This document shows, in pieces, positions 22,659 through 49,630 of a stretch of 64,000 nt of DNA. The notes under the pieces were generated by a model that was given only the letters and a program-made list of their open reading frames with translations, made no database searches and was not told the DNA's origin. Positions within the stretch are counted from its first letter, which is position 1. Each line of letters opens with the position of its first letter. The stretch comes from an uncultured Prevotellaceae bacterium (GTDB lineage Bacteria; Bacteroidota; Bacteroidia; Bacteroidales; Bacteroidaceae), in contig OMWH01000007.1 of NCBI GenBank assembly GCA_900314755.1, positions 1 to 64,000 on the forward strand. Direction: 5' to 3'. Both the position numbers and the translations under genes were made by a program.

Positions 22659-22688
22659 CAAAGATAATACAAATTTTTTAAATGGCAA
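22659..22688 (-). promoter_or_regulatory. Promoter of the beta-barrel gene
   Basis: TTG (22688-22686), a 19-base spacer and TATCTTTG (22666-22659), about 42 bases before the start. Confidence 0.65.
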
Positions 22689-22760
22689 TAAAATTTAGTT
22701 AAATTTTTCAAGAAAAGTTCATTTTCTCTTATTATTCACCACTTTTTGCCTGAATTTTAA

Positions 22761-29966: not shown

Positions 29967-30006
29967 ATTTGTATTCAATTCTTTAATTATAAAATTTCAT
30001 TTCTTC

Positions 30007-33000
30007 TTAGATACCCACTTTCAAGGTCAGTGTGAACTGCTTAGGCATAGGAGCGGCAACACCACCGGAACGGAAGAACTCAGGATCCTGACCGTTCAGT
30101 TTCTTGTCAGCATAAATCAGGAAGAGGTTCGTAGCCTGCAACTTCAAGGAGAGGTCGGTCAAATGCAGAGGAGCAATCCACTTCTTGGGGAAGTCATAGC
30201 TCAGTGAGATCTCCTTCATGCGGATGAAGTCACCCTTGGCAACACGTGCTGAAGAGTAGTTGTAAGCATTGTAGAGAGTCTTCATATAACGGTCATTGTT
30301 TGACTGACGCGCTGTGATGAGGACAGGGATATTCGTCACATTCTCGCCACCTGCTGAAATCCATCTGTTCTTGAACTCTTTGGGAAGAGCGTCAAGGTCA
30401 CTGTATGAATTAGAGAAGACAGGGTCAAGGCGTAACACGTTACCATAGCTGTAGGTGATAAATACATTCAGCTTGAAGCCTTTGTAAGAGAACACGTTAC
30501 CGAAAGATCCCGTATATACAGGGTCTGTAGGACCTTCATATACCAGATTGTCAAGATTCTGACTCTGGAAGTCAATGTTCTCACCACTGGAGGTAATATT
30601 ACCATCCTGGTCGGTGATGACAGGAAGACCGTCAGCGTTCAGACCATTGAACTTATAAGAGAAGAGGCCACGTACAGGATATCCCTCACGGGCAAATCCC
30701 ACACCTGCTACCAGGTCAATAACAGAGCTGGTGGCATCAAGGTCGGTTACCTCATTCTTCGCCTTAGAATAAATGAAGTTGGTAGTCCAGCTGAAATCCT
30801 TCGTCTGGATATTCTTGGTGGTCAGCGTCAACTCAAGACCGTGTGACTTCATGGTTGCGACATTCGCCATCTGAATAATCTGACCGCCACCACCAGGTGT
30901 CTGAGTCGGACCAATCAGGTCGTAGTTGTTACGCTTATACCAGTCAATAGCCAAATTGATGCGGTTGTTAAGGAAACCGAAGTCTGCACCGAGGTTGAAC
31001 TCGTGTTTCTTCTCATAGGTCAGATCAGAGTTTGCAGGGTTCAGTATTCTCAGTCCAGTCTCCTGAATATTGGCTGTAGGACGATACGTGTTGAACGACA
31101 TGATCTGTACCATGGCATTACTTACAGTTGAAGGACCTGGGTCACCAGTCAGTGAATAAGTAGCCTTCAAGGTTGCGTGGGTCAGCACGTTCTTGAAAGT
31201 ATTCTTAAACCAAGGCTCCTCATGGGCGTTCCATGCACCGGAGATGTTCCATGTAGGCAACCAGCGGGCACTGGAGGACTTACCCAGACGGTTAGAGCCA
31301 TCATAACGGAAAGTTCCGTTAATGGTATAGCGTCCCTTATAAGAATAAGTGGCGTTAGCGAAGAATGCAGCGGTACGAGAGTACGTATTGACCAGGGTGT
31401 AATAATCTGTACCACCCTCCTGCATCTTCTTGAAGTACATATAGTAGAAAGAAGGAATCTCTCCCATATTGTACTGCATGCCGACACCGTCAGAAGAAGT
31501 GCTGCGGCGGTCGATACCATTGGCTTCCACACCACCGAACAGGTTCAGGATGTGTGTGTCGTTGAACGACGTAGAATAGTTGGCGGTTGCACGGAAGTCA
31601 TAGGTAAGCATTTCGCTGTTACGCTTCAGGAAGAAACCACCACGTGGCAGAATTGACTGTGGTAAGTCATACTCATCATCAGGATTGTCATAAAGGAACG
31701 GGTTACGGTCACGGATGGTGGCATCACCCATTGCACGATATGCCTCTGCCTGGTTGGATGACTCTGTTACAGTATGCTCAATACTGTTGTGAGAATACTT
31801 GACGGCACCCAGCAAAGAGAGCTCAAGACCCTTAACCGGCTTGTATTTCAACTCACCCTGGAACTTCAGGTCTGTCACATCCAGATCCATATAGTTGTTA
31901 CTCAACTCATGCAGGATGTTGAAAGGAGCATAGTTACGGGTATAGAAGGTATTGGCATCCAACGTACGTGATGTATTCATAGAGTATGAATACGGGTTGA
32001 TATCGAAGTCACGTTTCACCTCACCGAATACAGGGTCAACACTCTGGCTCAAGGTACCGGGAGCCTTCTGCTTACGATATGATCCCATCGTCACCACACT
32101 CAGTGAGACCTTTGGTGAGATGTTGTAAGTCATGTTCATGTTCGCCGTGTAACGGTTCACCTTTGACTGCTTGTACCATCCTGGGTCAACCATGGCGGAA
32201 ACAGATCCATAGAACTGTACCTTATCCGTACCTGCTGATACACTTACGGAGTGGTTGTGCGAGATAGCGGTAGAGAACAACTGGTCGAACCAGTCGGTAT
32301 TACGATACTCAGCGTCCTTAAGATAAGCACTCTGTGCTTCCTTGGTATTGGCAAGGAGGAAGGTGCCTGTCTCAGGGTTGTAAGTGTTCATCAGCTGATA
32401 CATCTTACCATACACACCACTGTTAGAGGCACGGTAAGTATCAGAGAAGTTCAGCCAACCTTTTTGCTGCATCTCCTTATAAACACCCATCTGCTCCTGA
32501 GAGTTCATGATGTTAAACTCTCTGTAAGAGGGAATGAGACGCATAGAATATTCACCAGTATAACTGATCTTGCTATGACCAGCACGTCCCTTCTTGGTGG
32601 TAACGACAATCACACCAGCCATGGCACGGGCACCATAGATAGAGGTAGCACTACCGTCCTTCAGGATCTGGAATGACTCGATATCGTCGGAGTTCAAACC
32701 AGAGATCGCACTGGAGATCAAGGTCTCGGCATCACCAGAAGACAGGTCGTCGGCACTGACATCGGTCACATCCTCCATACGGACTCCATCAACCACCCAC
32801 AGGGGCTTGGAGTTACCATAGATAGAGGTGGCACCACGCACACGGATCTTTGGAGCTGTACCGAAGGTACCACTGACGTTCTGCACGCTGACACCGGCAG
32901 AACGACCTTCCAGTGAGCGGGAGATATCAGCCACACCATTGATGATAGCATCAGATGCACTCACTTTGTCTGATGCACCAGTAAACAGTCGCTTGTCCAC

Positions 33001-33300
33001 TTTCTGCATACCTGTGACAACCACTTCCTCAAGGGCTGCACTGGGTTGCAACGTGATGGTCATACCGTTCTTAGGAGTCACTGTCTGAGACTCCAGACCA
33101 ATATAGCTCACTACAATCTTCTTACCCGAGGGCACGTTGATCGTGAAGTGACCATCGGCATCCGTTACCGTACCTGCCTTCTGTCCCTGCACCAGGACGG
33201 TAGCACCGATGATGGGCTGGTTGTCCTCGCCAGAGATAACGGTACCAGTAACTTTTGTCTGGGCAAATGCCATTCCTAAACTGAGGAACAGACATGCCAT
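30007..33300 (-). CDS. SusC-family TonB-dependent transporter, SusC1 (currently promoter-linked)
   Basis: 1097 aa. CarboxypepD_reg-like domain (TKVTGTVISGEDNQPIIGATV), plug (LEEVVVTGMQKVDKRLFTGA, PLWVVDGVRMEDV, GARAMAGVIVVTTKKG) and barrel ending FTLTLKVGI. It starts at MACLFLSLGMAFAQ. An in-frame TAG inside the upstream inverted repeat rules out an earlier start. Compared with SusC2 and SusC3 (MEKRL...), the first codons are missing, so the signal peptide lacks its basic N-region. The ATG is 5 bases after the inverted repeat at 33305-33342, behind a strong promoter. It is closely similar to SusC2 along its whole length. Confidence 0.93.
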   Translation of the reverse strand: MACLFLSLGMAFAQTKVTGTVISGEDNQPIIGATVLVQGQKAGTVTDADGHFTINVPSGKKIVVSYIGLESQTVTPKNGMTITLQPSAALEEVVVTGMQKVDKRLFTGASDKVSASDAIINGVADISRSLEGRSAGVSVQNVSGTFGTAPKIRVRGATSIYGNSKPLWVVDGVRMEDVTDVSADDLSSGDAETLISSAISGLNSDDIESFQILKDGSATSIYGARAMAGVIVVTTKKGRAGHSKISYTGEYSMRLIPSYREFNIMNSQEQMGVYKEMQQKGWLNFSDTYRASNSGVYGKMYQLMNTYNPETGTFLLANTKEAQSAYLKDAEYRNTDWFDQLFSTAISHNHSVSVSAGTDKVQFYGSVSAMVDPGWYKQSKVNRYTANMNMTYNISPKVSLSVVTMGSYRKQKAPGTLSQSVDPVFGEVKRDFDINPYSYSMNTSRTLDANTFYTRNYAPFNILHELSNNYMDLDVTDLKFQGELKYKPVKGLELSLLGAVKYSHNSIEHTVTESSNQAEAYRAMGDATIRDRNPFLYDNPDDEYDLPQSILPRGGFFLKRNSEMLTYDFRATANYSTSFNDTHILNLFGGVEANGIDRRSTSSDGVGMQYNMGEIPSFYYMYFKKMQEGGTDYYTLVNTYSRTAAFFANATYSYKGRYTINGTFRYDGSNRLGKSSSARWLPTWNISGAWNAHEEPWFKNTFKNVLTHATLKATYSLTGDPGPSTVSNAMVQIMSFNTYRPTANIQETGLRILNPANSDLTYEKKHEFNLGADFGFLNNRINLAIDWYKRNNYDLIGPTQTPGGGGQIIQMANVATMKSHGLELTLTTKNIQTKDFSWTTNFIYSKAKNEVTDLDATSSVIDLVAGVGFAREGYPVRGLFSYKFNGLNADGLPVITDQDGNITSSGENIDFQSQNLDNLVYEGPTDPVYTGSFGNVFSYKGFKLNVFITYSYGNVLRLDPVFSNSYSDLDALPKEFKNRWISAGGENVTNIPVLITARQSNNDRYMKTLYNAYNYSSARVAKGDFIRMKEISLSYDFPKKWIAPLHLTDLSLKLQATNLFLIYADKKLNGQDPEFFRSGGVAAPMPKQFTLTLKVGI

Positions 33301-33304
33301 AAAC

Positions 33305-33342
33305 TTTTGTAGTATATGTATCTACACCTCCCCGCAAGAGGT
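33305..33342 (-). repeat. Left inverted repeat of the putative SusCD switch (IR-L)
   Basis: Read on the minus strand this matches 42014-42051 on the plus strand at 37 of 38 bases. It begins ACCTCTTGCGGGGAGGTGTA, differs at the next base (G here, C in IR-R) and continues ATACATATACTACAAAA. A small dyad ACCTC/GAGGT with a 7-base centre could be the recombinase core site. It lies between the SusC1 promoter and the SusC1 start. Confidence 0.9.
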
Positions 33343-33359
33343 CGGCACACAAGATTTTG

Positions 33360-33391
33360 CAAAATTACAACAATTATTCACAATCCGCAAA
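33360..33391 (-). promoter_or_regulatory. SusC1 promoter, inside the invertible segment
   Basis: TTTG (33391-33388), a 20-base spacer and TAATTTTG (33367-33360) on the minus strand. The surrounding bases (ATTGTGAATAATTGTTGTA) are almost identical to the SusC3 promoter at 38289-38320. Transcription should start near 33352 and run through IR-L into SusC1. No equivalent exists next to SusC2. Confidence 0.8.
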
Positions 33392-33499
33392 TAAATTTTA
33401 TAAAAACGTGTCATTTTAAGCCAAAATTTAACAATTCAGCCCCCTTTTCTTCCATTTTGGTGCATTTTTATGCCAAAAAGTTCCGAATTGATAAATAAA

Positions 33500-33532
33500 A
33501 ATCGGGATGTCCCGTCTTGGAGCATCCCGATT
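33500..33532 (-). terminator. Terminator of the SusCD-3 operon
   Basis: A 10-bp stem, AATCGGGATG (33500-33509) with CATCCCGATT (33523-33532). On the minus strand it is followed by TTTTATTTATC. It separates SusD3 from the SusC1 promoter. Confidence 0.8.
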
Positions 33533-33557
33533 CTTTATATATTAATAAGGTGTAGGA

Positions 33558-35045
33558 TTAGCGGGAACCACCTGCCCACCAAACATTCTCTGTGAAGATA
33601 TAGTTACCAGCCTCACTGCCTTTACCGAAGGCATCAGCAATGTTAGGATTCGACTGGACATCGCTCTCACCGTAAGGCAAGCGCAGCGGCCAGCGGTTTC
33701 CTGCACTGGAAGTGTTGTTGGGGTTCGTCAGTTCGACAGGATAGCCGCCATCGACATAGTTGCAACGACGGATGTCATTGTAAGTCTCAATCTGCTCATC
33801 ACGAGTCTGAGCGATATACTTCTGAATCAGGATCTCCTTCAATGGGTCTGCATCAAACAATGGCTGGATACCTGCGAGGTAGTCGGTAATCTCCTGTTCT
33901 GTGATGGCAGGAGTATATACGGCACCTGTCGCAGAGTAGTCCTCCATAGATGCGACAACACCCAGCTGGAACTCTGCAGAAGCATCCTGACCCAGGCGAG
34001 CCTTAGCCTCAGCGATGATGAAATACAGCTCAGACTTGCTGAACAAGTGCAGATAGGCAGCACCGTTGTCAAGCCACTGCGGAACATTGACCACCTCGGT
34101 AGCCATCGCCAACTCCTGATCACCAGGCTCAGCGACAACGTCACCTCCCCAGTAGTCGATGTTATAGATAGCCTCACGTGGGTCATCACGATCCAGCATC
34201 AGGTTATCAACAGTCGTGCAGGAACCATTATACTCACGGCTCCAGAAATAAGCAGACCAAGCGTTATCGGCAGTCACACCGTTGAACACATCAAGGGTAG
34301 CACCTGTGAAACCAGCGTCAAGAGCAGCCTCAGCCTCAGTGATCACCTCACTCAGCACGCTGCTGTTACGACCCATGGTGTGCAACAGGTAACGAGCCTT
34401 CAGGGCATGGGCAAAGCCAATCCACTGGTCAAGGTCACCCTTGAAGATGATATCCTGTGAACCGGCATTCTTCTCACCAGCCTCGAAGTTAGCGATAGCA
34501 GCATCCAATAGGTCAAAGATTGCCTTGTAGATATCCTCCTGCTTGTCAATCTTCGGAGCAGAGATATTCTGGAAGCACTCTGAGAAAGGAACATCTCCGT
34601 GCAGGTCAGTCAGCACGCCCCAGTTAAGGGCAGACAGTGTCTGTGCCATACCCAGCACATCAGCCTGTCCCTCGCTGACACCACCCTCGCCACACTTCTC
34701 GATAATCTGGTAGAGGTTGAAGAGGTTCAGATAGGTAGCGTTCCACTCGTTGTTGAAGGTCGCAGCTGCAGCAGTCTCACCAATGTTGCGGAGCTCAGCA
34801 TTCTTCAGCTGATTGTTACCTGTACCGAAAATCTGCTCCGTGTAACTTGACACATACCAGGCGTATGATCCGTTGACAACGGAATAAGCGGTGGCAACCT
34901 CAGCATCGGTAATCTGATATTTAGCATCCACAGCGGCAGCAGCCGGATGTGCCTTGTCTTCATTGATCCTGTCCATCATATCCTCCGAACAAGACATCAT
35001 CAGCAATGAAGTCAGTGATGCGGCAAATAAATATTTCATTTTCAT
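33558..35045 (-). CDS. SusD-like lipoprotein (SusD_2 type), SusD3
   Basis: 495 aa. Lipobox LMMSC (Cys19). The body (YTEQIFGTGNNQLKNAELRNI, LSALNWGVLTDLHGDVPFSE) fits the second SusD subfamily (SusD/RagB nutrient-binding lipoproteins), which differs from SusD1 and SusD2. It follows SusC3 by 24 bases and ends before a terminator. The pair lies wholly inside the segment between IR-L and IR-R, so inversion would carry it along with its own promoter intact. Substrate unknown. Confidence 0.88.
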   Translation of the reverse strand: MKMKYLFAASLTSLLMMSCSEDMMDRINEDKAHPAAAAVDAKYQITDAEVATAYSVVNGSYAWYVSSYTEQIFGTGNNQLKNAELRNIGETAAAATFNNEWNATYLNLFNLYQIIEKCGEGGVSEGQADVLGMAQTLSALNWGVLTDLHGDVPFSECFQNISAPKIDKQEDIYKAIFDLLDAAIANFEAGEKNAGSQDIIFKGDLDQWIGFAHALKARYLLHTMGRNSSVLSEVITEAEAALDAGFTGATLDVFNGVTADNAWSAYFWSREYNGSCTTVDNLMLDRDDPREAIYNIDYWGGDVVAEPGDQELAMATEVVNVPQWLDNGAAYLHLFSKSELYFIIAEAKARLGQDASAEFQLGVVASMEDYSATGAVYTPAITEQEITDYLAGIQPLFDADPLKEILIQKYIAQTRDEQIETYNDIRRCNYVDGGYPVELTNPNNTSSAGNRWPLRLPYGESDVQSNPNIADAFGKGSEAGNYIFTENVWWAGGSR

Positions 35046-35069
35046 ATTGCTATTCTTTCGTTAATGTGT

Positions 35070-38000
35070 TTAGAATGTGATCTTGAAACCACCACCGAAG
35101 CTGGAGGTGTTAGGAATAGAGAAGCGCTCGAAATAACCACTCATGTTACCGTTACCCTGAGAGCTCTCAGGATCGAGGTCCGGCATCTTAGCCCATACCA
35201 GTACGTTACGTGCGAACCCGAAGACAGAGATGTCGAAATTACCCAGACGGGGCAGCTGATAGCTCAGTGTCAGGTCGCGCATCTTGACATAGCTCATGTC
35301 GAAGATACCTGCCTCTGTGATTTCGTTATATGCCATATAGTACTCGGTCTTGTCCACCTCCTTGGTGTTCTTCTGTCCGGTAGCCTCGTCGATACCGTCG
35401 GCAACCATGGTGCCCTCACGGTAGTTGAGAGACTCCTTGGAAGCACCGAAGTAGTTCATCGTCAGGATAGTACCATTGTACATCTTACCACCCTTCTGCC
35501 AGTCGAAGGTAGCAGCGAGGGTCAGTCTCTTATAACGAGCCTTCAGGTTGAAGCCCATATTGAAGTCAGGAGTACACTCACCCAGGTTCTCACTACCGGC
35601 TGTAGGCTGAGGCAGACCGTCGGCAAGCAACAGTTGTCCGTCCTCTGTGCGCTTGAAGGCGACACCATAGATGTTAGGATAGGTACTGCCGGCCTGGGCA
35701 CGGACCTGTGGCTCTACGAAACCACCGAGCATGATGCTCTCCACACCCTCGGCGAGTTCCTTTACCTTACTCTTATAAGAGGTGAAGTTGATACCGAGGT
35801 TCACGTCGTAGTCTTTCTCCTGCAGGATAGCAGCGTTGACAGACAACTCATGAGCCCATGTCGTCATACGACCGGCATTGGTACGCAGATACTGGTAACC
35901 GGTAGAACCAGCGGTAGGTACGTCGAAAATCTGGTCTTTCACGTCCTGATAGCTGGCGGTATACTCGAAGCGCAGACGGTTGCTGAAGAAGTTCAGGTCA
36001 GCACCGAACTCCCAGTTGGTGGTGTTCTGTGGCTTCAGGTTCTCGTCAAACTTCACATAGTACGGAGTATAAGAGGTAGCTCCACCAATAGGATAGCTGA
36101 TAGGAGTATAGACATACATACCACTTCCATAAGTAGGTACATAGTAATAGTTATTATAGTACTGACCAGCCTGTCCTACCTGTGCGAACGAAGCACGCAA
36201 CTTACCATAAGAGAGGATCTTGTTGCCCTTCAGACCGGGAAGCTCTGTGAATATCCAGCCCAGTGATACGGAAGGATAGAAGAACGAGCGGTTGTTACGT
36301 GGCATGGTAGACACCTTATCGTTACGTCCTGTAACGATCAGGAACACCTGGTCTTTCCATGTCAGAGATGCCTGACCAAAGAAACCGATGGTACGCTCCT
36401 TGGCATGATAGCTCTCCCAGTAGTCCATGCTGGTGGCATTACGCATGATGGGCTGACCATACCACAGAAGTCCGGAAGCGTCATAGTCCCAGTGACGGCT
36501 GTTGTCGTGGTTGAACTCATTACCCAGCATGAAGCCGAAGTCCCACTCTCTGTCCTTACCCCACTGTGCCGTGAAGTTGATGGTGAACAGGTTATTGAAG
36601 ATGGTGCGCTTGACACCGAAGTCCTCTACCTCACCCTTGGTGTTATAGGCAGAACCCAGCTCAGCGATAGTCTCATTGCTGGTGGTATAGGTATCGATAC
36701 CAGCCTGCTCACGGAAGGTCAGCTTATAGTTGTCGCCCCAGTTCAGTTTCGGGCTGAACTCTAAATAGGCATTACCGAACACACGGTTGGTGTGCTGATA
36801 GAACTGGTCGTTGTCTGCCCACCAGTAAGGGTTGTTGAAGTTGGTGGAGCGGAACAGGATCTGACTGGTAGGCTCACCGGGAACATGGGTAGGTGTTCCT
36901 TTCAGGTTATACTCAGCAGGAGCGGAATATACCACGTTGATGACACCGTTGTTAGCACCAGGAGCGGAGTTGATGGACACAGAGCTGTAGTTTGCTGAGA
37001 AACCGGTCTTCCACTGGTCGTTAATCTCATAGTCAACAGCGCCACGAGCACCAGTACGCATCATTTTCGTGCTGGGGACGATACCCTGCTGATAGGTGTC
37101 ACTGATACTGAACGAGTAACCCAGTTTCTCCTTCTTCTGAGAGATGTTCAGGGTTGAGTTCTGTGTGAAACCAGTACGGAAGAAGTCACTTACGTTGTCA
37201 TAAGTCTGTGGGGTTACCCAACCGTCCAGACCTGCTTTCTCGTACTTAGGATTATAATACTGTCCGGGATGCCCCTGACTGTTTCCGCCATAGGTGGGAT
37301 CATCGGGCAATGAAGAGATCTTGGGACCCCAAGACATAGAGGAGTTGGGGTTATAAGTACCATAAGCCCCCTGTGCATACTCTTTCTGGTGCTCGTACTT
37401 GCGGCTGACCGTCTGGGCACTCAGGTCGGTAGAGAAGGTGATGACAGGCTTCTGGGTGTTCTTGCGACCACGCTTGGTGGTGATGACAACAACACCGTTA
37501 GAGGCACGGATACCATACAGGGCTGACGCTGCCTGACCCTTCAGGATGTTGATGGACTCAATATCCTCGGGGTTGATATCGATGCTACGGTTGGCAAAGT
37601 CAGAACCTGTTACTGAATTTAAGGTAGAGAAGTCCGGGTCAGAAGCGATAGGCATACCGTCCACCACATACAAAGGAGCATTGTTGCCGTCGAATGAACG
37701 GGCGCCACGGATCTGGATCTGGGTAGAGGCACCTGGGGTACCGGAAGAGGTACGGATGTCCACACCAGTCAGTTTACCTTGCAGGGCACTACCGATAGAG
37801 GAGGTACCCACTTTGTTCAGGTCGTCGGCACTCAACTCCTGAATGGCATAGCCGACGGACTTCTTCTGACGGGTAAGACCCATTGCCGTTACCACAATCT
37901 CGTCCAGATTAGTATCACCACTGCGCAATACGATACGCATGTTAGGACGTGCACTTATCTCCAGCGGCTCCATACCCACATAGGTGAAGCGAAGCTGTGA

Positions 38001-38204
38001 TTTTCCCGCAGGGACAGTCAGCGAGAACTGACCGTTAGAATCCGTTACGGTACCGATGTTTGTACCGACAACGAGAACAGAGGCACCGATAACGGGCTCG
38101 TTGTCCTCTTGGTAAACAACGGTTCCACTAACCTTAGTTTGTGCCAGTGCCATTCCCATACTTAGGAACAGGCAGGCAAAAAAAGTCATTAGCCTTTTTT
38201 CCAT
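35070..38204 (-). CDS. SusC-family TonB-dependent transporter, SusC3
   Basis: 1044 aa. Complete signal peptide (MEKRLMTFFACLFLSMGMALAQ), CarboxypepD_reg-like domain (TKVSGTVVYQEDNEPVIGASV), plug (LDEIVVTAMGLTRQKKSVGYA, PLYVVDGMPI, ASALYGIRASNGVVVITTKRG) and barrel ending GGGFKITF. Its N-terminus shows what an intact SusC of this group looks like and exposes the losses in SusC1 and SusC2. The rest of the protein is clearly more divergent. It has its own promoter at 38289-38320 and its partner is SusD3. Confidence 0.94.
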   Translation of the reverse strand: MEKRLMTFFACLFLSMGMALAQTKVSGTVVYQEDNEPVIGASVLVVGTNIGTVTDSNGQFSLTVPAGKSQLRFTYVGMEPLEISARPNMRIVLRSGDTNLDEIVVTAMGLTRQKKSVGYAIQELSADDLNKVGTSSIGSALQGKLTGVDIRTSSGTPGASTQIQIRGARSFDGNNAPLYVVDGMPIASDPDFSTLNSVTGSDFANRSIDINPEDIESINILKGQAASALYGIRASNGVVVITTKRGRKNTQKPVITFSTDLSAQTVSRKYEHQKEYAQGAYGTYNPNSSMSWGPKISSLPDDPTYGGNSQGHPGQYYNPKYEKAGLDGWVTPQTYDNVSDFFRTGFTQNSTLNISQKKEKLGYSFSISDTYQQGIVPSTKMMRTGARGAVDYEINDQWKTGFSANYSSVSINSAPGANNGVINVVYSAPAEYNLKGTPTHVPGEPTSQILFRSTNFNNPYWWADNDQFYQHTNRVFGNAYLEFSPKLNWGDNYKLTFREQAGIDTYTTSNETIAELGSAYNTKGEVEDFGVKRTIFNNLFTINFTAQWGKDREWDFGFMLGNEFNHDNSRHWDYDASGLLWYGQPIMRNATSMDYWESYHAKERTIGFFGQASLTWKDQVFLIVTGRNDKVSTMPRNNRSFFYPSVSLGWIFTELPGLKGNKILSYGKLRASFAQVGQAGQYYNNYYYVPTYGSGMYVYTPISYPIGGATSYTPYYVKFDENLKPQNTTNWEFGADLNFFSNRLRFEYTASYQDVKDQIFDVPTAGSTGYQYLRTNAGRMTTWAHELSVNAAILQEKDYDVNLGINFTSYKSKVKELAEGVESIMLGGFVEPQVRAQAGSTYPNIYGVAFKRTEDGQLLLADGLPQPTAGSENLGECTPDFNMGFNLKARYKRLTLAATFDWQKGGKMYNGTILTMNYFGASKESLNYREGTMVADGIDEATGQKNTKEVDKTEYYMAYNEITEAGIFDMSYVKMRDLTLSYQLPRLGNFDISVFGFARNVLVWAKMPDLDPESSQGNGNMSGYFERFSIPNTSSFGGGFKITF

Positions 38205-38288
38205 AAATACTATCAGTTTAATATAATAATTGAGTTGTATCTCTCTTTACCTTTCTCTAATATCAGCGAACATACCAGCTATGGGCTG

Positions 38289-38320
38289 CAAAAATACAAC
38301 AATTATTCACAATTCGCAAA
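38289..38320 (-). promoter_or_regulatory. SusC3 promoter
   Basis: TTTG (38320-38317), a 20-base spacer and TATTTTTG (38296-38289). The spacer is nearly identical to that of the SusC1 promoter. The leader is about 80 bases. Confidence 0.75.
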
Positions 38321-38485
38321 TAATTTTATTAAAAATTCTTCTAATGGTGCCGTTTTTTAACTTTTCCACCCCGCTTCTCGTACACTTTATTACAAAAAAA
38401 CGCAAAAAGTTTCCAAAGTGCAACTGCCATGACATTATGTTTTAATAGTAATATAATAATAATGTACGCGCGCGAAAGAAATCCC

Positions 38486-38581
38486 TACATAAAGTTTTTT
38501 ACCCTTGCAACCGTTGCCACCTTGCAACACGACCTGAAAATCAGACATTTAGATGTGGCAACGAAGTGGCAAGGGTGACAA
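38486..38581 (-). repeat. 96-bp foldable repeat element, copy B
   Basis: Same length as copy A and aligned without gaps on the minus strand. It keeps the pairing GTTGCCAC with GTGGCAAC and CCCTTGC with GCAAGGG. The outer side is flanked by a CGCGCGCG run (38468-38474), similar to the GC run next to copy A. It is oriented outward, away from the VapE-like gene. Confidence 0.88.
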
Positions 38582-38618
38582 CGTTTCGCATTTTTGTACA
38601 TTTTTAGGGGTGTTTTTC

Positions 38619-38649
38619 TTGCATTTCCACTTATTTTTTTGTATCTTTG
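38619..38649 (+). promoter_or_regulatory. Upstream promoter of the VapE-like gene (P1)
   Basis: TTG (38619-38621), a 20-base spacer and TATCTTTG (38642-38649). The start of the transcript would run into a small hairpin (CTTCGCCGAAG, 38651-38661) and then a second hairpin. Confidence 0.55.
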
Positions 38650-38674
38650 GCTTCGCCGAAGTTACTTAGCACTC

Positions 38675-38711
38675 GGGAATTAAAAAAAAGCTTGCTTTTT
38701 TTTGTATTCCG
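38675..38711 (+). terminator. Hairpin between the two VapE-like gene promoters, possible attenuator
   Basis: Arms GGAAT...AAAAAAAAGC and GCTTTTTTTT...ATTCC can pair around a TTGC-type loop, ending in an AT-rich stretch. It lies downstream of P1 and covers the -33 box of P2. It could end P1 transcripts, but the stem is mostly A-T. Confidence 0.4.
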
Positions 38712-38731
38712 CTCATTTTTTCGTAACTTTG
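38701..38731 (+). promoter_or_regulatory. Downstream promoter of the VapE-like gene (P2)
   Basis: TTTG (38701-38704), a 19-base spacer and TAACTTTG (38724-38731). The resulting leader would be about 310 bases and would contain the 22-bp array. Confidence 0.65.
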
Positions 38732-38839
38732 CAACTGATATTTCAAATCATATTATAAACCTATTATTGATTATTCAATCATGGTAGAGAACAAATTTAT
38801 TTTCAACGAAAACACAGGTATCTTTCTTAGGGTACCAGT

Positions 38840-38994
38840 GGGGAAACCGACGAAACATTTTGGGGAAGCCAATGGTTTCCTTACGGGGAATGATGGATTC
38901 CCATGGTGGGAATGATGGATTCCCATGGTGGGAATGATGGATTCCCATGGTGGGAACGATGGATTCCCATGGTGGGAACTGCATGTCCCAATAG
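38840..38994. repeat. 22-bp array in the leader of the VapE-like gene
   Basis: Units begin at 38840, 38862 (23 bp), 38885, 38907, 38929, 38951 and 38973. The central four are nearly identical (GGGAATGATGGATTCCCATG plus GT or GG), each with a dyad GGGAAT/ATTCCC. The outer units are degenerate. Because 22 is not a multiple of three, no repeat peptide is encoded. Confidence 0.88.
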
Positions 38995-39046
38995 AGCGGA
39001 ACATCCAAAAGCCATAACTTTTCACTAACATAACATACTATAGATT

Positions 39047-40894
39047 ATGAAACTAACATGTATCAAAACTGACAAGAAGAACAAACAACACGTAAACCTG
39101 CTACCCTTTGAGAACTTCATGGAACAGGTACTGGAAGACAATTATTTCGAGGATGTGGACGCACTGCGTACCTTCGTGCGGCATGCGGAGTCGTGGAGCA
39201 TCTTTGAGAGGATGCACCGACTTGCCGTCGTCTACCCTTCGGCAGTGATGAAAACAAACCAGGAGGGTAACCTCGTCGCCCGGCAGTTTAACGGACTTTT
39301 CACCCTGTCTGTCTCACCTGTCAAGGACGAGGAGGAGGCGGAAGTGCTGAAACGGATGACCGCCATCCTGCCCTGCACGATGCTCTCCCTGCTGGGAAGT
39401 AGTGGCAGGAGTCTGAAAGTCATCGTGAGAGCATGCCGCCCAGACGGTTCACTGCCCCAGACGGAGGAGGAGATGGAGTCGTTCTGCAAACAGGCATACC
39501 CTATCCTCTGCGGACTCTACGAGCCGTTGGTGACGATGGCGCAGACAGCGGACGCTTTGCAAGTGGCACCTGCCGTCCGGGGGGAGGGGCTTCCGCTATG
39601 GATGACGGGGTTCCGTATGACGGTAGACCAGCACCCGTACTACCATGCCGAGGCAACCCCCTTGCACATCCCCGACGGCATCTCGATGCAGGAGAAAGGG
39701 AAGTTGACACCCGATGACACACAGGCGAATGCCTCAGAAGCAGTCATCCAGAACACGAAAGACCTTATTTCCTTGCTGGACCGCCGCTATGCCTTCCGCA
39801 TGAACATGGTGATGGGCTACGTGGAATACCGTCTGAAGGAGAAATGGCACTACGGCTGGCGACCAGTCGACGAGCGGGTGCAGAACGGACTCGCCATGGA
39901 GGCACGGCTGGCGGGACTGAACGTATGGGACAAAGATGTCAGCCGTTACTTGCATTCTAACCTGGTACGAGCCTATAACCCTGTGGAGGAGTACCTCTGG
40001 GGACTGTGTCGCAAATGGGACGGACACGACTATATCGCCGACCTCGCCAGACGGGTACCTACCAGGAATCCGCATTGGGAGGAGTGGTTCCGCATCTGGT
40101 TCCTGGGGATGGTGGCACAATGGCTGGGAAGAAGCCGCCGCTATGGCAACTCCATCGTGCCCCTGCTCATCTCCAAACAGGGCTATAACAAGTCGACATT
40201 CTGCAAATCGCTGATTCCCACGGACATGCAGTGGGGGTATAACGACAGCCTCGTGCTCTCGGAACGCAAGTCGGTATTACAGGCGATGAGCCAGTTCCTG
40301 CTCATCAACCTCGACGAGTTCAACCAGATATCACCCAAGGTGCAGGAGGGCTTCCTGAAGAATCTCGTGCAACTCGCCTCTGTGAAGGTAAAACGTCCCT
40401 ACGGCAAACATGTCGAGGAGTTTCCACGCCTCGCCTCCTTCATCGCCACGGCAAATGTGACGGACATCCTCTCCGATCCTTCCGGAAGCCGCCGCTTCAT
40501 CGGTATCGAGTTGACAGGACCTATCGACATGTCACAACCCATCAACTACGACCAGCTCTATGCGCAGGCTGTCGCACTGATAGAACAGAACGAGCCCTAT
40601 TGGCTGAATGACCAGCAGACCCAGGAGGTCATGGAGTCAAACCGCCAGTTCAGGCGCAGCACCCCCGAGGAGATGTTCTTCGAGGAGTGCTTTATGATAC
40701 CGGAGCATGAGGGAGAGGGACAGTATATGACCACTGCCGCCATCTTCGCTGCCGTCAAGAAGAAAGGCGGCTCCGCCATACGCACCGGTAACATCCGCAT
40801 CTTCGGACAATTCCTCTCCAATATCGAGAATATCAAGCGCAGACGTACCCATTTTGGGACGGAATATCTCGTAGTTCCACATAAAAAACGCTAA
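39047..40894 (+). CDS. VapE/VirE-type P-loop ATPase with BT4734-like N-terminal domain
   Basis: 615 aa. The N-terminal 230 residues resemble the BT4734-like domain found in front of VapE domains in Bacteroidota. The C-terminal half is a VapE (virulence-associated protein E) P-loop domain of superfamily-3 helicase type. Walker A is SKQGYNKSTF (Lys382), Walker B is LINLDEF (Asp423, Glu424), a sensor segment is FIATANVTD, and an arginine-finger-like GSRRF lies near residue 487. VapE-like proteins are associated with mobile elements and replication initiation. The gene is flanked by outward-facing 95-96 bp repeats and lies beside a tyrosine recombinase. It may act on those repeats, or simply be a resident ATPase. 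No transposase signature is visible. Confidence 0.8.
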   Translation: MKLTCIKTDKKNKQHVNLLPFENFMEQVLEDNYFEDVDALRTFVRHAESWSIFERMHRLAVVYPSAVMKTNQEGNLVARQFNGLFTLSVSPVKDEEEAEVLKRMTAILPCTMLSLLGSSGRSLKVIVRACRPDGSLPQTEEEMESFCKQAYPILCGLYEPLVTMAQTADALQVAPAVRGEGLPLWMTGFRMTVDQHPYYHAEATPLHIPDGISMQEKGKLTPDDTQANASEAVIQNTKDLISLLDRRYAFRMNMVMGYVEYRLKEKWHYGWRPVDERVQNGLAMEARLAGLNVWDKDVSRYLHSNLVRAYNPVEEYLWGLCRKWDGHDYIADLARRVPTRNPHWEEWFRIWFLGMVAQWLGRSRRYGNSIVPLLISKQGYNKSTFCKSLIPTDMQWGYNDSLVLSERKSVLQAMSQFLLINLDEFNQISPKVQEGFLKNLVQLASVKVKRPYGKHVEEFPRLASFIATANVTDILSDPSGSRRFIGIELTGPIDMSQPINYDQLYAQAVALIEQNEPYWLNDQQTQEVMESNRQFRRSTPEEMFFEECFMIPEHEGEGQYMTTAAIFAAVKKKGGSAIRTGNIRIFGQFLSNIENIKRRRTHFGTEYLVVPHKKR

Positions 40895-40897
40895 TCG

Positions 40898-40992
40898 TTG
40901 TCACCCTTGTTACCTCGTTGTTACCGCAACTACTTGTTTTCCAAGTAGTTTTGCAAGGCGGCAACGGTAACAAGGGTAAAAAACTTTATGTA
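40898..40992 (+). repeat. 95-bp foldable repeat element, copy C
   Basis: It starts three bases after the stop codon of the VapE-like gene. Copy C folds best of the three: CCCTTGTTACC pairs with GGTAACAAGGG, CCGC with GCGG, and AACTACTTG with CAAGTAGTT. The outer stem differs from copy B on both arms (TTGTTACC with GGTAACAA here), which looks like compensatory change. It may also act as a terminator for the upstream gene. Confidence 0.88.
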
Positions 40993-40996
40993 GGGA

Positions 40997-41959
40997 TTAT
41001 AGCATCAGGCGATCAAGCAGTTCTTTGTTCGCCATGTCAATACGGTTGTCGTCAATCTCACGGATATAAGTCAGTGTCGTATTGGGGGAGGTATGTCCCA
41101 AAGCCCTGGAGATCACCGAGAGGTCGACATTGGCATGATAGGCGATGCTCGCCCAGGAGTGTCGTGCGACGTATGATGTCAGTCGGCGACCTAATCCCAT
41201 CATCTCTCCCAGTTTCCTCAGATGCCGGTTATAGCGGGAGCGGACTGACTCATACTCCTTTTCCCTGGCATCCCTGTCCGAAGCAGTCAGTATAGGGAAG
41301 ACATAGATGCTGTCCTCTCTGCTGTAGCGGTCGATGATCTGTTGCATAAGAGGCTCTATCCTTACACGAACCCGCTGTCCAGTCTTATGCCGGTCATACA
41401 CGATATAACCGCCTTTGCACTGTTGTTTCTGCAAGAAAGCCACATCCACGAAGGGCATCCCCAAGGCATAGAAACAGAAGAGGAAAATGTCACGGGAGAA
41501 AGCCAGAGGGGAGGAGGGAGGCAGCAGGATATGGCGCAACCGGGCAATATCATCGATAGCGATAGAGCGTTTGTCGGTACGCATCTTTCCAGTATAGATA
41601 TTGTCAAACAAATCCTGATGACGGCAAGACGGCTGCATCTGATAGAGTAAGGAGCGGATGGAGCGCATATAGCATGAGATGGTGTTCGGTGAGACATGTC
41701 GCTCCATCAGCCACTGTTGGAAACCCTCCAGCAGATGGGCATCGACAGCACTTATCACCACTTCTGTTCCGGCATAACGACCGAAGACACGTAAGGCTGT
41801 CTGGTAATTATTAATGGTACTCTTTGCCCGCAACCCAGTCAGTGACTGTACCAATTGAGTTGCCGAAGGAAAAAACTGAGGGCTCACGCAGCCCTTTTTC
41901 TTGTTCTGCTTGTCATTGTCATACAAGCGAAACTTCAGACTAATAGAAAACTTAAACAT
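40997..41959 (-). CDS. Bacteroides-type tyrosine recombinase, candidate SusCD invertase
   Basis: 320 aa from MFKFSISLKF, the chosen start. An upstream in-frame ATG at 42007 would overlap the promoter. N-terminal SAM-like core-binding domain about 25-120, then the catalytic domain. Visible catalytic residues are the beta-strand Lys in RHKTGQ, Arg in SYVARHSW, His in LGHTSPNTT and Tyr in LTYIREI. At the first catalytic Arg the protein has YALGM, so Arg I is not obvious; IntDOT of CTnDOT is a known case lacking this Arg. The gene starts 55 bases from IR-R and reads into the putative invertible segment. The stop codon lies in the terminal repeat of the VapE element. Confidence 0.88.
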   Translation of the reverse strand: MFKFSISLKFRLYDNDKQNKKKGCVSPQFFPSATQLVQSLTGLRAKSTINNYQTALRVFGRYAGTEVVISAVDAHLLEGFQQWLMERHVSPNTISCYMRSIRSLLYQMQPSCRHQDLFDNIYTGKMRTDKRSIAIDDIARLRHILLPPSSPLAFSRDIFLFCFYALGMPFVDVAFLQKQQCKGGYIVYDRHKTGQRVRVRIEPLMQQIIDRYSREDSIYVFPILTASDRDAREKEYESVRSRYNRHLRKLGEMMGLGRRLTSYVARHSWASIAYHANVDLSVISRALGHTSPNTTLTYIREIDDNRIDMANKELLDRLML

Positions 41960-41994
41960 CTCTCTTGTTGTTTTAAATGAAACGATTAATAAGG

Positions 41995-42002
41995 CAAAAA
42001 TA
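41995..42002 (-). promoter_or_regulatory. Probable recombinase promoter overlapping IR-R
   Basis: TATTTTTG (42002-41995 on the minus strand), about 35 bases before the recombinase start. There is no TTG at the expected -33 position, which falls in IR-R. Recombinase bound at the repeat could therefore repress its own gene. Confidence 0.5.
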
Positions 42003-42013
42003 ATCAATTATCC

Positions 42014-42051
42014 ACCTCTTGCGGGGAGGTGTACATACATATACTACAAAA
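42014..42051 (+). repeat. Right inverted repeat of the putative SusCD switch (IR-R)
   Basis: Partner of 33305-33342 with one mismatch in 38. The dyad CACCTC/GAGGTG (42013-42018, 42026-42031) has a 7-base centre TTGCGGG. It lies 50 bases before the SusC2 start and next to the recombinase promoter. No Bacteroidota promoter lies between this repeat and SusC2. Confidence 0.9.
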
Positions 42052-42101
42052 ATGAGATAGAATAATCATTAAATAGTTTAAATAATAACAAGAGAGTGTT
42101 T

Positions 42102-45100
42102 ATGGAAAAAAGACTAACGATGTTTATGGCATGTCTGTTCCTCAGTACTGTCTTAGTACAGGGACAGAAGGCAGGTACGGTAACGGATGCCGATGGTCAC
42201 TTCACAATCAGTGTACCCTCGGGTAAGATGATTGTAGTGAGTTATATTGGTCTGGAAACCCAGACGGTGACTCCAAAGAATGGAATGACCATTACTTTGT
42301 ATCCCAGTGCAGCCCTTGAAGAGGTGGTTGTAACAGGTATGCAGAAAATGGACAAGCGTCTGTTCACTGGTGCCACATCAAAGGTGGATGCGGAGAAGGC
42401 GAAACTGGATGGTGTTGCCGATATATCCCGTTCACTGGAAGGACGTGTAGCAGGTGTATCAGTACAGAACGTCAGTGGTACTTTCGGTACTGCTCCCAAG
42501 ATCCGTGTACGTGGTGCCACGTCAATCTATGGTTCATCTAAACCTTTGTGGGTTGTTGACGGAGTTATCATGGAGGATGTGACAGAGGTTGATGCCGATG
42601 CGCTGTCGTCTGGTGATGCAGAGACACTGATCTCCAGTGCTATCGCAGGTTTGAACTCTGACGATATCGAGTCGTTCCAGATTCTGAAAGACGGTAGTGC
42701 GACCTCTATCTATGGTGCCCGTGCCATGGCTGGTGTGATTGTCGTTACTACTAAAAAAGGAAAGCAGGGACAGACCCGCATCAACTATACCGGTGAGTAT
42801 ACCATGCGTCTGAAGCCCAGTTATTCCAATTTCAATATCATGAACTCACAGGAGCAGATGGGCATCTATCAGGAACTGGAGAACAACGGTCTGATATCAT
42901 TTGGTCGTACCTATCGTGCCACAAGCAGTGGTGTCTATGGTAAGATGTATCACTTGCTGAATACTTATGATCCTACTACAGGTACCTACGCCTTGGCAAA
43001 TACCCCTGAGGCAAGAAATGCTTATTTGAGGGAAGCAGAGATGCGTAATACGGACTGGTTTGATGAGTTGTTCTCAACTGCCATCATGCACAACCATTCT
43101 ATCTCTATGTCAACGGGTACTGACAAGGCTCAGTACTATACTTCTTTCAGTTACATGAACGACCCAGGATGGACGGAGGCATCAAAGGTAGAGCGATTCA
43201 CAACCAATATCAACGCCAACTTCAATATCTCAAAGAAGGTGACTATCAACATGATTGGTAATGCCAGTTACCGTAAGCAAAAGGCTCCTGGCACGACAAG
43301 CCAAAGCAGCAATGCGGTAACAGGTGCCACCAGTCGTGACTTTGACATCAACCCATATAGTTACGCTTTGAACAGTTCACGTACACTGGACCCCAATGCA
43401 TTCTATATACGCAACTATGCGCCATTTAACATCCATAATGAGTTGGCAAACAACTATATGGATCTGGATGTAGTAGACATGAAAATTCAGGCTGAATTGA
43501 AATACAAGCCCATCCGACAGGTGGAGTTAGCCGCTCTGGCATCTTACAAATACTCTGGAACCACTCAGGCACACCAGATTCGGGAGAACTCTAATCAGGC
43601 GATGTCATTCCGTGCCATGGACGATGCCACCATGCGTGATGCCAACCCATGGTTATACACAGACCCTGATGATGCCAACTCATTACCTATCAGTGTGCTG
43701 CCAAATGGTGGTTTCTACAACGAGACAAAGTATAAGATGAACAACTGGAGTCTCCGACTGACAGGAAGTTATAACGATGCCTTCAATAATGACATGCACA
43801 TCGTGAACTTTTTCGGTGGTATGGAGATTAACAATACTGATCGTAGCCGCAGTAGGTTTGACGGTGTAGGTATGCAGTATGCCATGGGTTACCTTCCCAA
43901 CTATGACTATCGCTACTTCAAGCAATCCAGTGAGCAGAATGCCGATTACTATGAACTGAGCAACAGTTATGGTCGTGAGGTATCGTTCTTCGGAACTGCT
44001 ACCTATTCTTATAAAGGACGCTATATTGTTAACGGAACTGTTCGTTATGAAGGCTCTAACCGTTTGGGAAAAGCCACCAGTGCTCGTTGGTTGCCTACAT
44101 GGAACGTATCTGGAGCATGGAATGCCCATGAGGAGCCTTGGTTCCAAAAGACTTTCAAGAATGTGCTGACCCACGCCACACTGAAAGCCTCATACTCTCT
44201 GACTGGTGACAAACCTGCTACCAACAACGCACAGGTTATCATTCAGAGTTACAACCCTTGGCGTCCGTTTACCAATGTCAAGGAGTCTGGACTGAGAATC
44301 TATGATTTTGCCAACCCAGATTTGACCTATGAGAAGAAGCATGAGTTCAACCTGGGTATTGACCTCGGTTTCCTGAATAACCGTATCAATGTACAGTTCG
44401 ACTGGTACAAGCGTAATAACTATGACCTCATTGGTCCACGTGTACTCAACGGTACTACAGGTACGCTTCGTGATTATGCCAATGTTGCCTCAATGCGTTC
44501 TCATGGCGAAGAGTTGAGCATTTCTACCAAGAATATTCTTACAAAAGATTTCCAATGGAGCACAGACTTCATTTTCGCCCATGTGAAAACCAAGGTAACA
44601 GATTTGGAAACTCATACGCGAGTCATCAGTATGATTAGCAATTCAGGCTTCACCATGCCAGGATATCCTTATCGTTCACTTTTCTCTATGGATTTCAAGG
44701 GGCTGAACGAGAATGGTGTCCCCACCTTTATCAACACGAATGGTGACCTGACCACCAGCGACCTTGACTTCCAGTCTTATGATACCGACTATTTGATTTA
44801 TGAAGGTCCAACAGATCCGACCGTTACAGGTTCACTGGGTAACACTTTCAAGTATAAAGGTTTCACGCTGAATATCTTTGCGACCTATTCGTATGGTAAT
44901 GTGATTCGCCTTGACCCGTCGTTTGCCGCTTCTTACTCTGACTTAGACGCCATGCCGAAAGAGTTTAAGAACCGCTGGACGATGGCTGGTGATGAGAAAT
45001 TCACAGATATCCCAGCAATTGCCGATTTGCGTATGTTGCAAAACGACTCACGTCTGGCATATGCTTATAATGCCTACAATAAGTCTTCTGCTCGTGTGGC

Positions 45101-45332
45101 AAAGGGTGACTTCATCCGCATGAAGGAGATTTCGCTGAGTTATGACTTCCCCAAGAAGTGGATTGCCGCTCTGAGTCTGAACAGTCTCTCTCTGAAACTT
45201 CAGGCAACTAACCTCTTCCTGATTTACTCCGACAAGAAATTAAATGGTCAGGATCCTGAGTTCTTCAACACGGGTGGTGTTGCCGTGCCTATGCCTAAGC
45301 AGTTCACCTTCACCCTCCGCGTAGGACTTTAA
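42102..45332 (+). CDS. SusC-family TonB-dependent transporter, SusC2 (currently without promoter)
   Basis: 1076 aa from the ATG giving MEKRLTMFMACLFLS; an in-frame GTG at 42096 is less likely. It is a close paralogue of SusC1 through plug (LEEVVVTGMQKMDKRLFTGA) and barrel (ending FTFTLRVGL). After LFLS it continues directly with TVLVQGQKAG. The 26 residues LGMAFAQ to PIIGA present in SusC1 are missing in frame, removing the usual cleavage site and the start of the CarboxypepD_reg-like domain. Cleavage after VQG might still be possible. No promoter is seen upstream in this orientation, so the gene is predicted silent until the IR segment inverts. Confidence 0.9.
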   Translation: MEKRLTMFMACLFLSTVLVQGQKAGTVTDADGHFTISVPSGKMIVVSYIGLETQTVTPKNGMTITLYPSAALEEVVVTGMQKMDKRLFTGATSKVDAEKAKLDGVADISRSLEGRVAGVSVQNVSGTFGTAPKIRVRGATSIYGSSKPLWVVDGVIMEDVTEVDADALSSGDAETLISSAIAGLNSDDIESFQILKDGSATSIYGARAMAGVIVVTTKKGKQGQTRINYTGEYTMRLKPSYSNFNIMNSQEQMGIYQELENNGLISFGRTYRATSSGVYGKMYHLLNTYDPTTGTYALANTPEARNAYLREAEMRNTDWFDELFSTAIMHNHSISMSTGTDKAQYYTSFSYMNDPGWTEASKVERFTTNINANFNISKKVTINMIGNASYRKQKAPGTTSQSSNAVTGATSRDFDINPYSYALNSSRTLDPNAFYIRNYAPFNIHNELANNYMDLDVVDMKIQAELKYKPIRQVELAALASYKYSGTTQAHQIRENSNQAMSFRAMDDATMRDANPWLYTDPDDANSLPISVLPNGGFYNETKYKMNNWSLRLTGSYNDAFNNDMHIVNFFGGMEINNTDRSRSRFDGVGMQYAMGYLPNYDYRYFKQSSEQNADYYELSNSYGREVSFFGTATYSYKGRYIVNGTVRYEGSNRLGKATSARWLPTWNVSGAWNAHEEPWFQKTFKNVLTHATLKASYSLTGDKPATNNAQVIIQSYNPWRPFTNVKESGLRIYDFANPDLTYEKKHEFNLGIDLGFLNNRINVQFDWYKRNNYDLIGPRVLNGTTGTLRDYANVASMRSHGEELSISTKNILTKDFQWSTDFIFAHVKTKVTDLETHTRVISMISNSGFTMPGYPYRSLFSMDFKGLNENGVPTFINTNGDLTTSDLDFQSYDTDYLIYEGPTDPTVTGSLGNTFKYKGFTLNIFATYSYGNVIRLDPSFAASYSDLDAMPKEFKNRWTMAGDEKFTDIPAIADLRMLQNDSRLAYAYNAYNKSSARVAKGDFIRMKEISLSYDFPKKWIAALSLNSLSLKLQATNLFLIYSDKKLNGQDPEFFNTGGVAVPMPKQFTFTLRVGL

Positions 45333-45371
45333 TAGAATAAAGGTAAAACAAGATAAAAGTAAATAATGATT

Positions 45372-49575: not shown

Positions 49576-49618
49576 AAGTATACTTTAAAATAATTCTGTA
49601 TTTTTGCGAAGTATACTT
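49576..49618 (+). promoter_or_regulatory. Promoter of the AAA ATPase gene framed by two 10-bp palindromes
   Basis: The perfect palindrome AAGTATACTT occurs at 49576-49585 and 49609-49618, 33 bp apart (about three helical turns). TATTTTTG lies between them at 49599-49606. The first copy covers the -33 region and the second the likely start site, so a dimeric regulator bound here would block or set transcription. Confidence 0.65.
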
Positions 49619-49630
49619 TCAGATATTGGT

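What the first reader, a model, noticed from the sequence alone, without database searches (positions are those of the whole stretch)
33305..42051. Either/or DNA-inversion switch between two paralogous SusCD operons
Seen: a 38-bp inverted repeat (37/38 identical) lies 5 bases upstream of SusC1 (minus) and about 50 bases upstream of SusC2 (plus). The SusC1 copy has a consensus promoter directly behind it, inside the intervening 8.7 kb. The SusC2 copy has none. A tyrosine recombinase gene begins 55 bases from the right repeat. Known: tyrosine recombinases invert promoters of SusC/SusD genes in Bacteroides. Inferred: inversion between the repeats would disconnect SusC1-SusD1-peptidase-DUF4302-BACON and connect SusC2-SusD2-peptidase-DUF4302, so one operon is always on and the other off. 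The invertible unit is unusually large and carries another SusCD pair, a VapE-like element and the recombinase itself.
Basis: partly seen in the sequence, partly recalled or inferred. Interest (0 to 1): 0.95.

Follow-up and report, generated by a model that had tools for sequence, protein, structure and literature searches.

The report
Either/or flip switch for nutrient importers
A Prevotella-group genome carries two divergent nutrient-uptake operons on either side of an 8.7-kb DNA segment that holds a recombinase gene and a predicted outward-facing promoter; the recombinase is predicted to flip the segment so that only one operon would be expressed at a time, and related genomes carry the same kind of segment with the predicted promoter next to either operon.

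Summary
In detail: inverted 38-bp copies (37/38) bound 8,671 bp carrying a tyrosine recombinase, a VapE-like gene, an inner SusC/SusD pair and one outward promoter match beside SusC1; none precedes SusC2. Relatives support the either/or model. Of 81 recombinase loci (window plus the best 80 of 510 relatives), 32 have divergent SusC genes on both sides; 25 of these 32 have a paired site ACCTC-N7-GAGGT (N8 in one). In the 24 with 17-bp sites the spacer is identical within each locus; 20 spacers differ among loci. An outward promoter match lies within 100 bp of exactly one site in 24 of 25, and inward at 0 of 50 ends. Orthologous operons are on the promoter side in one genome and the silent side in the other in 11 of 22 comparisons; L090/L099 share both operons, at opposite ends. 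Partner operons are also swapped beside conserved segments. Inversion within this strain, enzyme activity and expression are untested. It is a recurrent variant of known SusC/SusD inversion systems. SusC1 and SusC2 here have complementary 5' gaps, possibly a collapsed repeat.

The parts
33305..33342 (-). left inverted repeat; core site ACCTC-TTGCGGG-GAGGT at 33326-33342
42014..42051 (+). right inverted repeat; core site 42014-42030
33343..42013 (.). predicted invertible segment, 8,671 bp
33360..33391 (-). outward promoter match (TTTG-N20-TAATTTTG) now facing SusC1
30007..33300 (-). SusC1, operon predicted on in this orientation; start lacks the MEKRLTMF leader seen in relatives
28398..29978 (-). 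SusD1
27483..28379 (-). Peptidase_Mx1 protein of operon 1
26123..27451 (-). DUF4302/DUF4987 protein of operon 1
24942..26108 (-). BACON-domain protein of operon 1
42102..45332 (+). SusC2, operon predicted off in this orientation; 78-nt in-frame gap after the signal peptide relative to relatives
45366..46997 (+). SusD2
47036..48142 (+). Peptidase_Mx1 protein of operon 2
48155..49447 (+). DUF4302 protein of operon 2
40997..41959 (-). tyrosine recombinase (320 aa from ATG 41959), predicted invertase
39047..40894 (+). VapE-like protein with BT4734-like N domain, passenger
35070..38204 (-). SusC3, passenger inside the segment
33558..35045 (-). SusD3, passenger inside the segment
38289..38320 (-). 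SusC3's own promoter match, within a 49-bp direct repeat (90%) of the SusC1 promoter region
38701..38731 (+). promoter match upstream of the VapE-like gene

Best explanation
Two divergent SusC/SusD-peptidase operons flank a segment bounded by inverted copies of a 17-bp site, and the tyrosine recombinase encoded in the segment is predicted to invert it, which would connect the segment's one predicted outward end-promoter to one operon and disconnect the other. In the present orientation that promoter match points at SusC1 and SusC2 has none. Steps: (1) the recombinase binds the ACCTC/GAGGT arms and exchanges strands in the identical 7-bp spacers (inferred); (2) the segment inverts with the recombinase gene in it (inferred); (3) the site ends up in the 5' leader of whichever operon is on (follows from the sequence if the promoter is real). 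The SusC3/SusD3 pair and the VapE-like gene ride inside; SusC3 has its own promoter match with no site in between and would be on in both orientations. The same architecture recurs in many Prevotella-group genomes with interchangeable operons.
For: Own locus. Family: 32 of 81 loci (window plus 80 kept of 510 relatives) have SusC on both sides of the recombinase; 25 of 32 have a core pair; spacer identical within 24 of 24 pairs with 17-bp cores, 20 distinct spacers, mean 4.07 of 7 mismatches between loci, 0 of 10,000 permutations as good; shuffled null 0 of 2,500. Promoter match within 100 bp inside the sites: exactly one end in 24 of 25 (19 at the recombinase-end side, 5 at the recombinase-start side), 0 of 50 ends inward, 0 of 50 within 100 bp outside the sites toward the gene, shuffles 1.9% per end. 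Both orientations in nature: L090 vs L099 share both operons (SusC 90% and 89%; DNA 83-85% over about 4.5 kb) at opposite ends; L072 vs L076 share a 95.6% identical segment with the same spacer, and the SusC/SusD operon they share (88.5% over 4.5 kb) lies at opposite ends; the window's own pair of operons recurs in L065, L078 and L108, with the promoter match on the SusC2 side in L065 and on the SusC1 side in the window, L078 and L108; the operon with the SusC2 ortholog is on the promoter side in G036 (SusC2 97%) and on the silent side in the window and G094 (92%). Promoter state differs in 11 of 22 ortholog comparisons among 24 loci. First 90 residues of the two SusCs of one locus average 76% identity against 34% for the rest (24 pairs), versus 56% and 33% between loci (109 of 120 drawn pairs).
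Against: No contig with the other junction in the own assembly. All comparisons are between species representatives, so they show inversion over evolution, not switching in a population. In L090/L099 the segment (about 69% identical) is more diverged than the flanks (83-85%), so replacement as well as inversion may have occurred; in L072/L076 the other partner operon differs (31% SusC identity). Seven of 32 SusC-flanked loci lack the motif pair by my cut-offs; six of these have another inverted repeat between the SusC starts, L069 has none found. With 250-bp windows two loci (L077, L081) have a promoter match at both ends, so the side given to L077, and with it one of the 22 comparisons, is open. 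L123 had no match in the 100-bp window. Site pairs were chosen as the best match among candidates with up to two mismatches, which favours alike spacers. The 22 comparisons and 24 pairs are not phylogenetically independent. Promoter matches and catalytic residues were not tested. In this contig SusC1 lacks the usual start of the signal peptide and SusC2 a 26-codon stretch, which, if real, could impair both proteins.
Confidence: 0.88

Rival explanations
1. The inverted repeat is only a conserved 5' leader (regulatory or RNA element) shared by two divergent paralogous operons; nothing inverts.
For: The repeats lie in the 5' leaders of paralogous genes (80-86% alike over stretches of 439 and 246 nt) and the core could form a hairpin (read from the sequence).
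Against: A shared leader would be conserved among loci; instead the 7-bp spacer differs between loci and is identical within each locus. Paired SusCs that are on average only about 34% identical beyond the N terminus still share the site. Orthologous operons lie at opposite ends of the segment in different genomes. No Rfam family matches 30000-46000.
Confidence: 0.06
2. A relic: the switch existed in ancestors but is now locked in this strain, because the segment took in SusC3/SusD3 and VapE and the SusC 5' ends are damaged.
For: Largest segment of 25; both SusC 5' ends are abnormal relative to the four relatives aligned; a relative, G233, has a VapE-SusC3-SusD3 block (88/92/90%) on a contig without a core site, and no recombinase relative was found in that genome at E 1e-30.
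Against: Recombinase ORF intact and aligned over most of its length to relatives; both cores perfect and identical; promoter match intact. The two 5' gaps are complementary, each gene missing what the other keeps, as a collapsed inverted repeat in an assembly would look.
Confidence: 0.2
3. Homologous recombination between long similar 5' arms, not the recombinase, causes the inversions.
For: In many loci repeat arms of 100-300 bp run into the SusC genes and N-terminal parts are more alike within a locus than between loci.
Confidence: 0.07

Closest known systems
Bacteroides fragilis SusC/SusD shufflons inverted by Tsr0667 (Nakayama-Imaohji 2009, not held; seen only as passages in PMC4747536, and PMC11852207)
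   Same: A site-specific invertase changes which SusC/SusD genes are expressed.
   Different: Described there as shufflon-type multiple inversions at three clusters plus nine other regions by one master enzyme. Here only two sites in the genome, a local recombinase inside the segment, and whole operons chosen by one promoter.
Invertible regions in or near SusC/SusD genes of gut Bacteroidales (PMC10939037 passages; [quoted passage not shown]
   Same: SusC/SusD genes under DNA inversion; large invertible segments are known.
   Different: The passages seen do not describe a recombinase-carrying segment with a different complete operon at each end; Prevotella is not named in PMC10939037.
Salmonella Hin flagellar phase switch (review passages PMC11868660; the anatomy is recalled)
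   Same: Invertible segment carrying the recombinase gene and an outward promoter (recalled).
   Different: Hin is a serine recombinase; one end only drives an operon and the other locus is repressed in trans (recalled). Here a tyrosine recombinase and an operon at each end.
Campylobacter fetus sap S-layer promoter inversion (recalled; only a passing mention seen; search listing)
   Same: One promoter in an invertible segment between homologous surface-protein genes that share 5' ends (recalled).
   Different: Other phylum and gene family; here complete SusCD-peptidase operons.
Bacteroides capsule invertible promoters (Mpi; passages in PMC12632263 and PMC4747536)
   Same: Inverted repeats flank a promoter in Bacteroidales.
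   Different: Control of each capsule locus by one serine recombinase acting at 13 regions, not a choice between two operons.

Membership tests
Site-specific DNA inversion (phase-variation) locus | Inverted repeats with a defined core and identical crossover spacer | tested here: met
Site-specific DNA inversion (phase-variation) locus | Recombinase encoded nearby | tested here: met
   activity untested
Site-specific DNA inversion (phase-variation) locus | Promoter at one end only, facing out | tested here: met
   by consensus match in 24 of 25 loci, the window among them; promoter activity untested
Site-specific DNA inversion (phase-variation) locus | Both orientations exist | tested here: met
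   between species only: L090/L099, L072/L076, window/L065
Site-specific DNA inversion (phase-variation) locus | Both orientations within one strain | not testable with these tools
   no reads; no second-orientation contig in own assembly
Tsr0667-type SusC/SusD shufflon | More than two sites, several invertible cassettes | tested here: not met
   two copies in the genome at up to 3 mismatches; one weak further core hit at 2 mismatches on another contig
Tsr0667-type SusC/SusD shufflon | Controls SusC/SusD expression | tested here: inconclusive
   gene content met; expression untested
Tsr0667-type SusC/SusD shufflon | Same recognition sequence | not tested
   source paper not held
Hin-type switch | Serine recombinase | tested here: not met
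   tyrosine recombinase
Hin-type switch | Recombinase and outward promoter inside the invertible segment | tested here: met
   (promoter by consensus only)

The most novel reading that the evidence does not exclude
The locus is one member of a widespread modular platform of the Prevotella group: a recombinase-promoter unit with locus-private sites acts as a two-position selector into which whole SusCD operons are swapped through homogenised 5' arms, so that the repertoire of surface importers is renewed by both flipping and operon exchange, while the segment itself carries passengers such as a VapE-like replication gene, a captured constitutive SusCD pair or, in Segatella copri, a Septu-like defence pair.
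Probability: 0.5. Interest if true: 0.8.

Novelty: new variant of a known kind. Interest (0 to 1): 0.72.

Why it matters
SusCD importers are abundant surface proteins of Bacteroidetes that set diet range and are met by phages and immunity (general knowledge; immune side in PMC10939037 passages). A selector that allows one of two complete operons, with a private site per locus and exchangeable operons, would help explain how Prevotella renews its surface, and would matter for anyone reading importer content from a genome: at each such locus one of the two operons would be silent in any one cell. It gives an exact site, a predicted promoter and a cultured relative (Segatella copri) in which to test switching.

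Tried and rejected
Same 38-bp repeat in other genus members: 0 of 199 others at up to 3 mismatches, which at first looked like a lack of relatives; spacers and leaders differ by locus. A damaged catalytic motif in the recombinase (FYALGMPFVD, where I recalled TRGM as usual for the group) was considered and dropped, because close relatives share it. A local conserved RNA was considered: no Rfam match in 30000-46000. A close relative with the same locus intact was sought: G233 has the SusC1 operon (SusC1 96%), but its contig ends inside SusC1 and no recombinase relative was found there at E 1e-30; G148 contigs also end just upstream of the SusC starts. The tool's terminator scan found none behind SusD3; a long-loop hairpin read by eye at about 33500-33532 is a guess. 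SusC1/SusC2-type genes are common in the genus (248 of 398 genomes at E 1e-300); I did not test how many are linked to a recombinase. Literature: the listings of searches (terms SusC, SusD, inverted repeats, inversion, Prevotella, invertible, invertons, Segatella, shufflon, recombinase; in 23-25 'susc' also matched words such as susceptibility) and the passages read showed me no description of an either/or SusCD selector in Prevotella; the two key B. fragilis papers are not held, so absence from print is not established.
Full report
Observation. The two 38-bp arms at 33305-33342 and 42014-42051 are 97% complementary and 8,671 nt apart. They are the only copies in the own genome with up to 3 mismatches. 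The flanking genes are as described. The Bacteroidetes-type promoter matches (TTTG-N18-22-TAnnTTTG; consensus recalled) in the scanned region, about 31500-44500, are those of SusC1 (33360-33391, minus), SusC3 (38289-38320, minus) and the VapE-like gene (38701-38731, plus); none precedes SusC2. The host is placed in the Prevotella group because same-genus genomes hold contigs whose lengths match named Prevotella and Segatella contigs (for example G094:C51 and G041:C24); this is inference.

The site. Relatives of the recombinase occur in the same genus (28 of 200 genomes at E 1e-60 or better, the own genome included). Of the 27 other loci looked at with flanks, 12 show SusC matches on both sides by my count, and many have a motif ACCTC-N7-GAGGT in inverted repeats. 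A scan of one genome for each of 84,980 species found 510 relatives, of which the best 80 were kept. With the window these make 81 loci: 32 have SusC on both sides, 9 on one side and 40 on none by my criteria. Of the 32, 25 have a site pair (up to one arm mismatch per site, up to two between sites, best pair taken). The 24 pairs with 17-bp sites have identical spacers; 20 spacers are distinct; between loci the mean is 4.07 mismatches of 7, compared in locus orientation; none of 10,000 permutations did as well. Mononucleotide-shuffled sequence gave no pair in 2,500 trials. This is what a recombinase that needs spacer identity would leave, and not what a conserved leader would leave.

The promoter. 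Within 100 bp inside the sites an outward promoter match is found at exactly one end in 24 of 25 loci, at the recombinase-end side in 19 and the recombinase-start side in 5. None faces inward (0 of 50 ends) and none lies within 100 bp outside the sites facing the gene (0 of 50); shuffled ends give 1.9%. With 250-bp windows L123, the exception, has one too, and L077 and L081 have a second match at the other end.

Orientation. L090 (UBA3734) and L099 (RUG12193) share both flanking operons (SusC 90% and 89%, DNA 83-85% over about 4.5 kb) at opposite ends of the recombinase segment, with homology changing near the sites; the segment itself is only about 69% identical, so it was also replaced or evolved faster. 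L072 and L076 have a 95.6% identical segment with the same spacer, and the operon they share (88.5% over 4.5 kb) lies at opposite ends; their other operons are alike over the first 0.85 kb (about 75%) and differ beyond. The pair of operons seen in the window recurs around relatives of the recombinase in L065, L078 and L108: the promoter match is on the SusC2 side in L065 and on the SusC1 side in the window, L108 and L078 (L078 fell below my site cut-offs). The SusC2 ortholog (97% in G036, 92% in G094) is on the promoter side in G036 and on the silent side in the window and G094. In 22 ortholog comparisons at 75% or more among 24 loci, the promoter state differs in 11 and agrees in 11 (L077's side is open, which touches one comparison). 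These comparisons are not independent and are between species.

Exchange of operons. L083 and L085 share a segment (95.6% over 1.85 kb) and one operon at 98.7% over 4.5 kb, while the SusCs on the other side are 27% identical, alike in DNA only over the first 290 bp; L063 and L064 likewise (segment 91%, one operon 98%, the other SusCs 41%, about 730 bp). The first 90 residues of the two SusCs of one locus are on average 76% identical when the rest is 34% (24 pairs; 5 of 29 pairs with the rest at 45% or more were left out, and the window, L079 and L089 were not used), against 56% and 33% between loci (109 of 120 drawn pairs) (start codons were set roughly, as the first Met of the frame). The 5' arms therefore look homogenised within a locus and could serve as crossover points for whole operons; that step is inference.

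Passengers. The VapE-like gene sits tail to tail with the recombinase in the window and in L058, where it is 89% identical and the block is collinear with the window at about 80% over 3.2 kb. SusC3/SusD3 orthologs (73-74% and 63-65%) are flanking operons in L072 and L076, but lie inside the segment here. The promoter region behind SusC1 repeats the one before SusC3, and both match the single promoter end of L058. G233 carries VapE-SusC3-SusD3 (88/92/90%) on a contig without a core site. The simplest reading is that an operon once switched was captured inside the segment together with a second copy of the promoter end; this is inference. SusC3 would then be on in both orientations.

5' ends. 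Against the four relatives aligned (G036, G094 and two G148 genes), SusC1 here lacks the leader and the first codons (MEKRLTMF), and SusC2 lacks 78 nt after the signal peptide; each keeps what the other lacks. Two independent deletions or a collapsed inverted repeat in the assembly are possible; the complementarity favours the second.

Verdict. An either/or inversion switch is the best explanation (0.88). Switching in this strain, enzyme activity and expression are untested. It belongs with known site-specific inversion systems for SusC/SusD, but the anatomy (two sites, enclosed local tyrosine recombinase, one end-promoter, whole operons, private spacers, exchangeable partners) differs from the B. 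fragilis shufflon as described in the passages read.

Noticed in passing
33298-33342 and 42014-42230: Complementary 5' gaps: SusC1 lacks the leader and first codons that SusC2 keeps, SusC2 lacks the 78 nt that SusC1 keeps. Possibly a collapsed inverted repeat.
   Followed up: partly
38480-38597 and 40884-40998: The VapE-like gene is bracketed by inverted copies of a dispersed repeat of about 115 bp with 25 matches in the own genome, these two included; G233 has many too.
   Followed up: partly
38864-38995: Tandem array of 22-bp units GGGAATGATGGATTCCCATGGT upstream of the VapE-like gene.
   Followed up: no
38633-38735: Stretch upstream of the VapE-like gene that has matches at several places in each of the five other genomes searched.
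   Followed up: no
L066, L068, L086, L103, L105, L107, L109, L111, L113, L117, L118, L125: Related recombinases without flanking SusC have the same core (up to one arm mismatch) as a pair 130-259 bp apart next to the gene: likely small promoter invertons by the same site family. In Prevotella illustrans (L103) the next long frame is a BspA-type leucine-rich repeat protein.
   Followed up: partly
L123:9635-15549: Segatella copri iAQ1173: 5.9-kb segment with PtuA- and PtuB-like (Septu) genes inside; the two flanking SusCs are identical over about 95 N-terminal residues.
   Followed up: partly
49604-50908: AAA_14/DUF4143 protein next to the SusC2 operon matches PADLOC candidate PDC-S01.
   Followed up: no
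L231 (G233:C68): VapE-SusC3-SusD3 block on a contig without core sites in a near relative: fossil or source of the captured operon.
   Followed up: partly
18775-24827: Hybrid two-component regulator (Reg_prop, AraC-type HTH) and a GH127 beta-L-arabinofuranosidase beside the SusC1 operon.
   Followed up: no
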